Source: Malaciobacter molluscorum LMG 25693 (GTDB lineage Bacteria; Campylobacterota; Campylobacteria; Campylobacterales; Arcobacteraceae). From it: a stretch of DNA of 64,000 nt. Below are positions 45,797-48,791 of the stretch, piece by piece. The notes below the pieces were generated by a model. That model saw only the letters and a program-made list of their open reading frames with translations. It was not told the DNA's origin and searched no databases. The position numbers were made by a program, and so were the translations under genes. The stretch is from contig NZ_CP032098.1 of assembly GCF_003544935.1 (NCBI RefSeq), positions 124,001 to 188,000 of the forward strand. Reading direction: 5' to 3'. How positions within the stretch are numbered: position 1 is the first letter of the stretch; each line of letters begins with the position of its first letter.

Positions 45797-46414
45797 TTAT
45801 ATAACTTTTTTTAATAAATCTTCTTCAATTAAAGAGTTTCTTAATCTATTCTCCTGTGATTCACTTGAAAGAATTTTATTACAATCACTACATAATGTAA
45901 TTAAGTTTTCAAAATTATATCCTCCACCTTTTGATAAAGGTTTTACAAAAGATACATAAGCATCAGAAGAACTTATTTTTAGTCCACATCTTTTACATTT
46001 ACAATTGTCTCTTCTATAAGTGAAATCTTTTCTTTTTATCCAATCATTTGGTCTTCTATTATTTATAGGTTTAGAACCAGCTTCATAATTTGACCATAAT
46101 AAGTCTTTATCTATACAATCTTGTGTTTGTAATTCATATTCATAATCAATAAATTGAGAGACTAAATCTTCAATTATTAAAATTTGTCTTCTTTTACTAT
46201 CTTTTTCATTTTCTGTTTTCTTTATAATATTATTTAATTCAAATTTTATATTAGGATATGTCTCTTTTAAATGAATTCTTATATCATGTAAAAAACTATT
46301 AAAATCTCCATTTCTTCTAAATAACTTGTACACTTTTTTTCTATAAATATATAAAGGTATTATACATAATATTATTATACTACCACTTATTATAAAATCT
46401 AAATCTAGATGCAT
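45797..46414 (-). CDS. Membrane-anchored degenerate HNH-domain protein
   Basis: A 205-residue protein with one N-terminal transmembrane helix (7-24), a middle helical region and an HNH-type zinc scaffold at about 130-180. The two CX2C pairs (C140/C143 in CKCKRCG and C175/C178 in LCSDC) and N170 are kept. The catalytic His expected in an (E/V)DHIIPLSKGG motif is replaced: the sequence is VSFVKPLSKGG, with F156 at the His position, and the final His is N179. Nuclease activity is therefore doubtful. It is convergent with the secretin gene (2-base gap) and one base downstream of the FrdB/HdrB-like gene. Confidence 0.75.
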   Translation of the reverse strand: MHLDLDFIISGSIIILCIIPLYIYRKKVYKLFRRNGDFNSFLHDIRIHLKETYPNIKFELNNIIKKTENEKDSKRRQILIIEDLVSQFIDYEYELQTQDCIDKDLLWSNYEAGSKPINNRRPNDWIKRKDFTYRRDNCKCKRCGLKISSSDAYVSFVKPLSKGGGYNFENLITLCSDCNKILSSESQENRLRNSLIEEDLLKKVI

Positions 46415-46415
46415 A

Positions 46416-47510
46416 TTAGATTATTCCTGGATTAATTGAATGTTTTTTAAAAAAGTTATTTGCTTCATTAAAATTACCTTCAACAAGTAAATTTAGTTCT
46501 TGTAGATGTAAGATTGGCAAATTAATTTCTCTTTTAAGCTGCTTTTTTAACTCTTTTCTATTATAATCAAAGATATAAAAATCATAAATATTATTAACTA
46601 CTAAAAAGTCACTACCTTTGTCAAATGCTTCTTGTATAATTTCACCCGCAATTTTAAATGTTAGATTTTTATTAATATGAAAACTAGATTTATTTAAATC
46701 TACATCTTTTGTATCTAAATCAATTATCTTACAAGCAAGCTTTTTTAAATATGATTTTATAAAATGATTATTTTCTCCATAATATGATATGTTAAAATCT
46801 TTAAAATTATTTTTAATATTAATATTAATTGAAGAAAGTTCTTTCAAATTAAAATTTGTTGTTTTGTTTATTTTAAAATTTTGTTCTTCATCTTTTTTAT
46901 AAAAATTTAATTCTTTTTTTAGTTTTAATATTTTATTTTCTATATTTTCATCAAAGTTAAAAATTCTATTCTTTAAACTTGTATGATATTGTATTCCAGT
47001 TGGATATTGTTTAATCACTTTTAAAATTTTATTTTTTAGATTTGCTTTTTTTTCTATTATATAATCTGCTAATAGAAGAGTAGAATCTCCAATATAATTT
47101 TTTTCAAAATTTAAAGTATTTGATGCATAATAATATTTTTTTAAAGATTTATAATATACCTTGTCATCTTCATCTAAAAATTCATCTAAAATTTCAAGTC
47201 TTTCATAAAAATCATTATCATTGATTATTAAATCAGTCATTGCTCTTCTTTTTGATAATGGTTCTATGATTAACTCATTATTAAAGTTATTATAAATATC
47301 TTCTAAATTTATAGAACAATCGACAACTAAATTATTTAATATAATCTGTGAGTCTTCATTTTTATCATAGAAAAATTCATCTTCTTCATTCATTGTATTT
47401 AATAAATCAAGTAGCGTTTTTTCATTTTTAGTTTTTATAAAATATTTTTTATAAAATGGAACATAATCAGACTTATAATCAAATCTAAAAAGTGATATCT
47501 CAAATTTCAT
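46416..47510 (-). CDS. Cysteine-less FrdB/SdhB-like protein with HdrB-like C-terminus
   Basis: A 364-residue soluble protein. Residues 4-105 follow the N-terminal domain of fumarate reductase/succinate dehydrogenase iron-sulfur subunits (ISLFRFDYKSD, TLLDLLNTMNEE, then ELIIEPLSKRRAMTDLIIN with FYERL), and 119-151 follow their cluster domain (YKSLKKYYYASN...KNYIGDSTLLLADYI). Residues about 286-346 recall HdrB C-termini (AGEIIQEAFDKGSDFLVV, FDYNRKELKKQL, LPILHLQELNLLV). Only C65 and C260 remain, so no cluster is expected. Likely a DUF5644/HdrB C-terminal-domain protein of Campylobacterota. Probably co-transcribed with murA upstream. Function unknown. Confidence 0.6.
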   Translation of the reverse strand: MKFEISLFRFDYKSDYVPFYKKYFIKTKNEKTLLDLLNTMNEEDEFFYDKNEDSQIILNNLVVDCSINLEDIYNNFNNELIIEPLSKRRAMTDLIINDNDFYERLEILDEFLDEDDKVYYKSLKKYYYASNTLNFEKNYIGDSTLLLADYIIEKKANLKNKILKVIKQYPTGIQYHTSLKNRIFNFDENIENKILKLKKELNFYKKDEEQNFKINKTTNFNLKELSSININIKNNFKDFNISYYGENNHFIKSYLKKLACKIIDLDTKDVDLNKSSFHINKNLTFKIAGEIIQEAFDKGSDFLVVNNIYDFYIFDYNRKELKKQLKREINLPILHLQELNLLVEGNFNEANNFFKKHSINPGII

Positions 47511-47525
47511 ACTATTAACCTTTTA

Positions 47526-48791
47526 TTATTCGTCAAATCTTTTAATATCCACACCTATTTTACTTAATTTACCTTCTAAATCTTCATATCCTCTATCTAA
47601 ATGGTAAATTCTGTGAATATTTGTTTCTCCTTTTGCAACTAATGCTGCTAAAACAAGTGCTGATGAGGCTCTTAAATCTGTAGCCATAACATCTGTACCA
47701 TTTAAACTATTTGTAGTTCCATTTATAGTTGCAATATTTCCATTTAAATGAATATCTGCACCTAATCTTAATAGTTCGCTAACATGCATAAACCTATTTT
47801 CAAAGAGTCTTTCATCAATTGTACTTGCTCCATTTGCTTGTGTTGCTAAAGCCATAAACTGTGCTTGCATATCAGTAGGAAAACCTGGATATTCAGAAGT
47901 GATAATATTTACTGGTTTTATTTCATCTGTTGGAAGAATTGTTAATGAATCTTCAGCTTGTATAATCTTAAAATTCATCTCTTCAAGTTTAGATATAACT
48001 GCTTCTAAATGTAATGGAATTACATTTTTTATTTTAATTTCTGAATTTGTAATTGCTGCTGCACATAAATATGTACCTGCTTCAATTCTATCAGGAATGA
48101 TATCAAAATCTTTAAATTCAAGTAACTTTCCATTTGTTCCTTCTATGCTGATTTTTGATGTTCCAATCCCTTCAATCTTTATTCCAGCATTTTGTAATAC
48201 TTCACATAATTGAACAATTTCTGGTTCTTTTGCAGCGTTTATTATAGTTGTAATTCCTGTTGCTAAACTTGCTGCCATTATTATATTTTCTGTTCCACCT
48301 ACTGTGACTTTATCAAATACAATTTTTGTTCCTTTCAGACCACTTTCACAAATTGCTTGAATATATCCATTTTTTATTTTGATTGTTGCACCCATTTGTT
48401 CTAATGCTTTTAGATGTAAATCAACTGGTCTTTGTCCAATTGCACATCCACCTGGAAGTGATACTTCACAATGTCCAAATCTTGCAAGTAATGGACCTAA
48501 AACTAGAATTGATGCTCTCATTGTTTTAACAATATCATATGTTGCTTTTGTTTTATTTATTTTAGATGTATTTATATCTATTAAATTTTTATTTCTAGAG
48601 TAAGAACTACCTAATTTTTCTAATAATTTTAATAAAGTATTTATATCTACTACATCTGGCAAATTACCTATTTTAATATCATTTTTAGCTAATATTGTTG
48701 AAGCTAATAGCGGCAGTGCAGCATTTTTAGCACCTGAAATAGATATCTCTCCTTGTAGTTTTTTCTTCCCTATAATCTTTAAGTATTTCAT
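47526..48791 (-). CDS. murA: UDP-N-acetylglucosamine 1-carboxyvinyltransferase
   Basis: First committed enzyme of peptidoglycan synthesis, adding enolpyruvate to UDP-GlcNAc. The 421-residue EPSP-synthase-like protein has [15 protein letters not shown] at the start, the catalytic cysteine in [16 protein letters not shown] (fosfomycin target), and [17 protein letters not shown]-like and RVMHV-equivalent [16 protein letters not shown] segments. It is the first gene of a - strand run with the FrdB/HdrB-like gene 15 bases downstream and the HNH-like gene. Confidence 0.96.

What the first reader, a model, noticed from the sequence alone, without database searches (positions are those of the whole stretch)
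46416..47510. FrdB/SdhB-like protein that has lost its iron-sulfur cysteines, fused to an HdrB-like tail
Seen: the order ISLFRFDYKSD, TLLDLLN, ELIIEPLSKRRAMTDLIIN, then YKSLKKYYYASN and KNYIGDSTLLLADYI tracks the fumarate reductase/succinate dehydrogenase iron-sulfur subunit through both cluster domains. The cysteine positions hold other residues, and only C65 and C260 exist in 364 residues. The C-terminal LPILHLQELNLLV and preceding helix recall HdrB. Inference: a redox scaffold repurposed as a binding or regulatory protein, co-transcribed with murA.
Basis: partly seen in the sequence, partly recalled or inferred. Interest (0 to 1): 0.65.

Follow-up and report, generated by a model that had tools for sequence, protein, structure and literature searches.

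The report
Cofactor-stripped relative of respiratory complex subunits
This gene makes a protein built like two electron-carrying parts of a succinate/fumarate enzyme joined together, but it has lost the sites that hold iron-sulfur clusters; relatives run through a whole bacterial phylum, including one of unknown function in the stomach bacterium Helicobacter pylori.

Summary
The 364-aa protein (X) at 46416-47510 is a paralogue of SdhB (iron-sulfur subunit) fused to the second half of SdhE (HdrB-like subunit) of the "E-type" succinate:quinone oxidoreductase, with the cluster cysteines gone. Profile comparison gives E 3e-22 to SdhB and 6e-14 to SdhE. At 12 SdhB ligand positions 16 of 16 true SdhB have Cys; of 77 X proteins 61 keep none, 15 one and 1 two, and the first [2Fe-2S] loop is deleted in all 77. 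X is no pseudogene (dN/dS about 0.15) and forms one clade (100/100). Its helical part is Pfam DUF5644, found in 198 of 397 genomes of the phylum; solved H. pylori 3KWL is a relative. In 12 loci B' and E' are two separate genes. X lies next to sdhA in 13 of 77 loci. The murA link was seen only in Arcobacteraceae, and murA is followed directly by the HNH gene in 8 of 9 X-less genomes read. X is probably a non-redox pseudo-subunit that binds complex-II-type proteins; that function is inference. Structure prediction gave no model.

The parts
46416..47510 (-). Protein X, 364 aa: Cys-poor SdhB-SdhE fusion paralogue (DUF5644 / HdrB-like_C)
47205..47510 (-). Residues 1-102: degenerate plant-type ferredoxin domain (Fer2_3-like)
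   Evidence: Fer2_3 match 5-102, E 2e-4, below cut-off; hhalign to SdhB
47340..47370 (-). Around residues 47-57: place where the first [2Fe-2S] cysteine loop of SdhB (two of its four Cys) is deleted
   Evidence: gap in 77 of 77 X proteins at these two Cys columns; alignment A2
46905..47204 (-). Residues 103-202: degenerate helical dicluster domain = DUF5644
   Evidence: DUF5644 match 110-202; aligned SdhB Cys153/163/210 are Tyr in 67, Ser in 67 and His in 51 of 77 X proteins
47118..47153 (-). YKSLKKYYYASN, residues 120-131: counterpart of the SdhB CxxCxxCxxxC cluster motif, all four Cys replaced
46428..46805 (-). Residues 236-361: degenerate second CCG domain of SdhE / HdrB-like C-terminal domain
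   Evidence: HdrB-like_C 276-358, E 7e-12; hhalign to SdhE
47526..48791 (-). murA, directly upstream of X; context
   Evidence: NCBIfam murA equivalog E 7.5e-174, over cut-off; next to X in 28 of 77 X loci
45797..46414 (-). HNH-domain protein with a hydrophobic N-terminus, directly downstream of X; context only, not functionally tied to X
   Evidence: HNH E 2e-9; retained in X-less genomes

Best explanation
SHOWN by sequence: X belongs to a widespread Campylobacterota family of paralogues of two subunits of the E-type succinate:quinone oxidoreductase. Its N-terminal 200 residues are SdhB without cluster ligands and its last 125 are the second CCG domain of SdhE without cluster ligands. Some lineages keep B' and E' as two adjacent genes, E' in at least five loci alignable with both CCG domains; others have one fused gene. 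INFERRED: a copy of sdhB-sdhE beside sdhA lost its clusters, the cluster pockets were filled with bulky or polar residues, and the folded shell was kept as a non-redox pseudo-subunit. Most likely it binds a complex-II-type partner (flavoprotein SdhA/FrdA or its iron-sulfur partners) as an assembly, storage or regulatory factor, and was later uncoupled from sdhABE and moved, in Arcobacteraceae, into the murA-HNH gene pair. My own split: about 0.93 for identity and origin as an SdhB+SdhE paralogue, about 0.3 for the complex-II-partner function.
For: Homology. Cluster positions: 16 of 16 SdhB and 17 of 17 SdhE have Cys at all 12 and 10 columns examined. Among 77 X the SdhB columns hold Cys in 0, 0, 2, 5, 0, 0, 0, 0, 5, 2, 3 and 0 proteins; 61 proteins keep none, 15 one, 1 two. 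Two of the columns have Tyr and Ser in 67 of 77 each. At the five Cys columns of the second CCG domain only the second Cys of the CCG motif survives, in 15 of 76 (11 of 64 fused, 4 of 12 C genes), a relic. Intermediates: 12 loci carry separate N and C genes, and the C proteins of L125, L126, L140, L141, L143 match the SdhE profile from position 5 to 286-289. Single clade of X, 100/100. Link to sdhABE: X is immediately beside sdhA in 13 of 77 loci, 11 co-directional and 2 divergent; of the 20 X-bearing genomes with a strong E-type SdhE match, 13 have this adjacency, 3 more have X within about 5 kb, and 4 have it elsewhere. Constraint: dN 0.10, dS 0.69 against G005.
Against: Adjacency to sdhA may only record where the duplication happened. 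44 of 72 X-bearing genomes have no true SdhE or MfrE match, and some genomes have the E-type SdhB but no X (G011, G012, G024), so neither needs the other. The unrooted tree has three sides, X, E-type SdhB and MfrB+FrdB, and X is not nested inside SdhB, so it does not by itself show that X came from SdhB rather than branching before it. The deleted loop is, from recalled structural knowledge, part of the face that SdhB/FrdB turns to the flavoprotein, which argues against ordinary docking on SdhA. 12 species of one genus (one only 54% complete) lack X and still have an SdhB/FrdB-type protein. No partner, expression or structure was measured.
Confidence: 0.55

Rival explanations
1. X works with its Arcobacteraceae neighbours: a regulator of MurA or cell-wall synthesis, or a partner/immunity factor of the HNH nuclease.
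For: murA-X-HNH is collinear in the 28 Arcobacteraceae loci L069-L096; X-HNH gaps are -1 to 24 bp.
Against: Of the 49 other X loci 42 have thiL or truD within three genes and 13 have sdhA beside X. HNH relatives persist in X-less species, and murA is directly followed by HNH without X in 8 of 9 such genomes read; in the ninth, G011, the HNH stretch read holds no murA. In G016 and G017, which have X, the HNH gene lies away from X.
Confidence: 0.08
2. X has swapped its clusters for another ligand (metal, nucleotide, heme or quinone) and is a binding enzyme or sensor.
For: Some replacing residues are strongly conserved: Tyr at SdhB C153 (67 of 77), Ser at C163 (67 of 77), His at C210 (51 of 77).
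Against: The replacements read more like pocket filling than a new site. Of the 25 columns of the SdhB part that are over 80% conserved in X, 22 carry the same majority residue in SdhB, as expected of fold residues; the other 3 are two former Cys columns and one Arg-to-Ile column. No ligand was tested.
Confidence: 0.15
3. X descends from an already fused TfrB-type (thiol:fumarate reductase B) protein rather than from separate sdhB and sdhE genes.
For: The TfrB model is among the weak N-terminal matches (E 6.5e-5) and has the same FrdB-HdrB order (architecture recalled). Many Helicobacteraceae-type (f13) members lie in open frames of about 496-525 aa, near the TfrB model length of 488.
Against: Split B'/E' genes occur in 12 loci of at least three families. 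E-type SdhB score 69-102 bits with the X profile against 14-18 bits or none for 8 periplasmic MfrB. TfrB itself was not put in the tree.
Confidence: 0.1
4. X is a decaying, non-functional duplicate.
For: Nearly all cluster ligands gone; fast change (52% identity to three congeners where murA keeps 86-90%); absent from some species.
Against: dN/dS about 0.15 with the nearest relative; full-length match without stops in 70 of 104 Arcobacteraceae genomes; present in at least nine families.
Confidence: 0.02

Closest known systems
H. pylori HP0468 / PDB 3KWL (DUF5644 protein, uncharacterised)
   Same: Same family: phmmer E 8e-17 with X, profile E 1.9e-33, N- and C-terminal parts both matched
   Different: 514-residue chain against 364 aa, with an extra middle region. 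The identity of 3KWL with HP0468 is inferred here from length (gene 1488 bp, PMC6090961 passage) and the DUF5644 label (PMC9570263 passage), not looked up.
SdhB of E-type succinate:quinone oxidoreductase (SdhABE); cytoplasmic by inference, since the flavoproteins read here start without a twin-arginine signal
   Same: N-terminal ferredoxin domain plus helical domain, shared FRF..D..P.Y, IEP, RA..D..I and G signatures
   Different: 12 ligand Cys positions lost or nearly so, first [2Fe-2S] loop deleted, C-terminal 100 residues missing
SdhE / HdrB (CCG domain proteins)
   Same: Second CCG domain and C-terminal AxD..AD...FD...GRE..P.L signature
   Different: Cys absent except a relic second CCG Cys in 15 of 76; the first CCG domain is missing in the fused form. 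True SdhE match Pfam CCG, and HdrB-like_C only below its cut-off in 2 of 3.
Periplasmic MfrABE (8-methylmenaquinol:fumarate reductase; PMC2680327, abstract and passages)
   Same: Same superfamily and gene order A-B-E
   Different: Flavoprotein with a twin-arginine sequence in 7 of 8 read (the eighth starts later); much lower similarity to X; real cysteines kept
TfrB (thiol:fumarate reductase B; architecture recalled)
   Same: Natural FrdB-HdrB fusion in the same order
   Different: A redox enzyme with clusters; only a weak N-terminal match

Membership tests
DUF5644 / HdrB-like_C family (HP0468-type) | Matches PF18712 and PF22196 over the curated cut-offs | tested here: met
   29.5 against 25 bits and 45.6 against 33.4 bits
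DUF5644 / HdrB-like_C family (HP0468-type) | Same clade as the other Cys-less proteins, apart from true SdhB | tested here: met
   43 X rows, one clade 100/100; the window's own row was not in the tree, its 81% identical G005 orthologue was
SdhB/FrdB iron-sulfur subunit | Common descent of sequence | tested here: met
   hhalign E 3.3e-22
SdhB/FrdB iron-sulfur subunit | Cysteines for three iron-sulfur clusters | tested here: not met
SdhE/HdrB | Two CCG domains with the ten-cysteine motif | tested here: not met
   only the second domain aligns, without its Cys
E-type SQOR (SdhABE) subunit | Part of an sdhA-sdhB-sdhE gene set in the same genome | tested here: not met
   no SdhE in G000 (0 matches at 1e-10). 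G000 does have two FrdA/FrdB-type pairs.
TfrB | FrdB-HdrB fusion with clusters, clade membership | not tested
   TfrB sequences not fetched; ligand Cys absent in X
SdhB/SdhE fold | Three-dimensional fold | not testable with these tools

The most novel reading that the evidence does not exclude
A phylum-wide family of cofactor-stripped complex II 'pseudo-subunits' exists: an SdhB-SdhE pair that lost its clusters yet was kept since early in Campylobacterota as a dedicated non-redox chaperone, inhibitor or adaptor of fumarate/succinate respiration. HP0468 of H. pylori, reported as up-regulated by molecular hydrogen (PMC6090961, discussion passage), would be its best studied member.
Probability: 0.3. 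Interest if true: 0.72.

Novelty: new variant of a known kind. Interest (0 to 1): 0.5.

Why it matters
It gives an origin and a testable role to a protein family with a solved but unexplained structure in a human pathogen and members in a large part of a phylum. If X binds complex-II-type proteins it would be a case of an electron-transfer subunit turned into a cofactor-free regulator or assembly factor, comparable to pseudokinases. The split and fused forms, the relic cysteine and the sdhA-side position preserve possible intermediate steps of that change.

Tried and rejected
Pseudogene: rejected by selection and conservation. murA or HNH partner: weakened. Weak Pfam matches (HisK-N-like in 1 of 28 members at E<=0.01, ATG5, DUF2096 and others) taken as chance. 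Strict dependence on SdhABE/MfrABE: rejected. Promoter and terminator scan: 24 promoter-like sites where shuffles give 28.7, so uninformative; one terminator-like site, inside the HNH gene. The genome-contig scan gave one locus only. Literature: searches for Cj1459/Cj1460 (these locus tags are my recall from gene order), for the hydrogen study behind the HP0468 remark (listing only, the study itself not found), for HdrB with cysteine, degenerate and Campylobacter and for SdhB paralogue terms (listing only) gave no paper on this; the library holds open-licence papers only. A search for 3KWL found one paper that lists it as uncharacterised (PMC3397514, passages read).

Limits of the counts. The phylum profile search scored at most 5 candidates a genome and its profile also picks up true SdhB, so I did not use its 338 of 397 as a count of X; the DUF5644 count (198 of 397 at E<=0.001, 182 over the cut-off, 0 of 14 control genomes) is a lower bound, since for example G007 has X but no DUF5644 match. 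Of the 79 neighbourhood loci read, two were not counted as X loci: L068 (no X found) and L065 (a fragment of X at a contig end). In one search the C gene of L067 fell under my threshold and was left out of the 12 C rows although it matches HdrB-like_C. The SdhE columns of the first CCG domain mean little for fused X, which lacks it (one stray Cys in 64). The X protein of L131 (410 aa, 10 Cys) probably carries a false upstream start that inflates its Cys count. In one search I chose 30 of the 64 fused X rows plus all 13 N rows; one SdhB gene (G162) stands in that tree twice, and the program flags long branches, among them L066 and L067. X-less genomes read at the HNH locus: 7 of the 12 X-less species of g11, G009 and G011. 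Homology outside Campylobacterota was not searched beyond the 14 control genomes.

Full report
What is there. The window holds an intact 364-aa gene on the - strand (46416-47510), between murA (47526-48791; NCBIfam murA E 7.5e-174) and an HNH-domain gene (45797-46414), all in one direction. The genome is an Arcobacteraceae relative; the one named record found is Arcobacter sp. CECT 8985, 67% identical in this protein.

Homology. Pfam places HdrB-like_C on residues 276-358 and DUF5644 on 110-202, both over their cut-offs, and Fer2_3 on 5-102 below its cut-off. NCBIfam shows weak matches, far below cut-off, to SdhB, FrdB and TfrB models within residues 2-122. An alignment of 28 orthologues compared with true SdhB (A4) and true SdhE (A5) gives E 3.3e-22 and 6.1e-14. 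The same profile finds solved E. coli FrdB and SdhB, HdrB weakly, and 3kwl_A of H. pylori strongly. Nine true SdhB, MfrB, FrdB, SdhE and MfrE proteins were scanned: 0 of 9 match DUF5644 at E<=0.1, while two SdhE match HdrB-like_C below its cut-off. So DUF5644 marks the degenerate form.

Cluster sites. In an alignment of 77 X proteins with 16 true SdhB, all SdhB have Cys at the 12 positions I took as ligands. X has Cys there in 0, 0, 2, 5, 0, 0, 0, 0, 5, 2, 3 and 0 proteins; 61 keep none, 15 one and 1 two. Two of the [2Fe-2S] positions fall in a deletion common to all 77, and the last position is a gap in all 77. Tyr stands in 67 of 77 at SdhB C153, Ser in 67 of 77 at C163, His in 51 of 77 at C210. 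On the SdhE side, 17 of 17 SdhE have all ten Cys; of the five in the second CCG domain only the second Cys of the motif survives in X, in 15 of 76. Of 25 columns of the SdhB part conserved over 80% in X, 22 have the same majority residue in SdhB, which suggests a kept fold.

Relatives and intermediates. X is full length in 70 of 104 Arcobacteraceae genomes and fragmentary in 2 more; 17 others match only through true SdhB and 15 have no match (my count from its table). In the phylum sample DUF5644 rings in 198 of 397 genomes and 38 of 68 genera, and in 0 of 14 control genomes. In 12 loci X is two neighbouring genes. In the C gene of L125, L126, L140, L141 and L143 the SdhE profile matches from position 5 to 286-289, so both CCG domains can be aligned there, with the cysteines gone apart from the relic. 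These look like the state before fusion and loss of the first CCG domain (inference). The tree of N-terminal parts (43 X, 21 E-type SdhB, 8 periplasmic MfrB, 2 FrdB; 74 rows, 72 different) puts all X in one clade (100/100). It is unrooted and has three sides: X, SdhB (91/86) and MfrB+FrdB (97/85, where the program warns of long branches). X is not nested inside SdhB. Groups within X follow families only in part. The closeness of X to E-type SdhB therefore rests on scores (69-102 bits for 21 E-type SdhB against 14-18 or none for MfrB and FrdB) and on gene position.

Gene neighbourhood. 77 loci with X were read. 28, all Arcobacteraceae, are murA-X-HNH. Of the other 49, 42 have thiL or truD within three genes of X (named by Pfam and NCBIfam). 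13 have sdhA immediately beside X, 11 of them as X-sdhA-sdhB-sdhE in one direction and 2 divergent, in four families. The sdhA of L057 is an SdhA over the NCBIfam cut-off and far under that of the periplasmic MFR flavoprotein. Of the 72 X-bearing genomes searched for SdhE, 20 have the E-type SdhE (E below 1e-140), 8 the periplasmic MfrE type (about 1e-75) and 44 neither; the 22 Arcobacteraceae of the murA type in that search are among the 44. The likeliest ancestral order is truD-thiL, then X-sdhABE; sdhABE was lost or moved in many lineages, and X moved to murA-HNH in Arcobacteraceae (inference).

The murA link. murA-X gaps run from -11 to 127 bp and X-HNH gaps from -1 to 24 bp in 28 loci (start codons chosen mechanically), so co-transcription is plausible. 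But in seven X-less species of genus g11 and in G009 murA is followed directly by HNH; in a ninth X-less genome, G011, and in G016 and G017 (which have X) the HNH stretch read holds no murA. HNH relatives occur in 88 of 104 genomes, many without X. Neither neighbour needs X.

Constraint. Against G005 (81% identity) dN is 0.102 and dS 0.691; murA on the same stretch has 0.023 and 0.578. X changes fast but under purifying selection.

What it may do. The cluster ligands are gone, so electron transfer by the ancestral route is very unlikely on sequence grounds. What is kept is the shell of SdhB joined to half of SdhE, linked to sdhA in several families. I commit to a pseudo-subunit that binds a complex-II-type partner as an assembly or regulatory factor, at about 0.3. 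Against it stand the many genomes with X but no SdhE, those with E-type SdhB but no X, and the deletion of the loop that faces the flavoprotein in known structures (recalled). From papers: HP0468 is listed as a DUF5644 protein in a table of a study of Helicobacter proteins associated with flagellar sheaths (PMC9570263, start of abstract in the listing and one table passage) and is said to be up-regulated by molecular hydrogen (PMC6090961, passages; the study cited there was not seen). The E-type enzyme and its periplasmic MFR form are from PMC2680327 (abstract and passages).

Known or new. The family is known to Pfam as DUF5644 plus HdrB-like_C and has a solved member, so it is not a new family. 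I found no statement in the searches made that DUF5644 is a degenerate SdhB helical domain, that the whole protein is an SdhB-SdhE paralogue, or that split and sdhA-linked forms exist; the library is open-licence only, and of the papers listed I opened passages of four.

Noticed in passing
window 45797-46414 (-): HNH-domain protein with a hydrophobic N-terminus followed by basic residues, perhaps membrane-anchored with the nuclease domain inside; it follows murA, with or without X, in the Arcobacteraceae loci read except G011, G016, G017.
   Followed up: partly
L125, L126, L140, L141, L142, L143, downstream of X: A ~130-aa gene follows split X in these loci; the L126 copy matches Pfam Desulfoferrodox (superoxide reductase-like) and the others match it by BLAST.
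   Followed up: no
L164 and L169 (genome G344): Two complete periplasmic MfrABE-type gene sets in one genome.
   Followed up: no
L131 and L132: X is divergent from sdhABE here but co-directional in the other sdhA-adjacent loci, so gene orientation changed at this locus.
   Followed up: no
L066:4279-5253: X-like protein of 324 aa whose stop overlaps the sdhA start by 4 bases; it lacks roughly the last 35 residues of other fused X.
   Followed up: no
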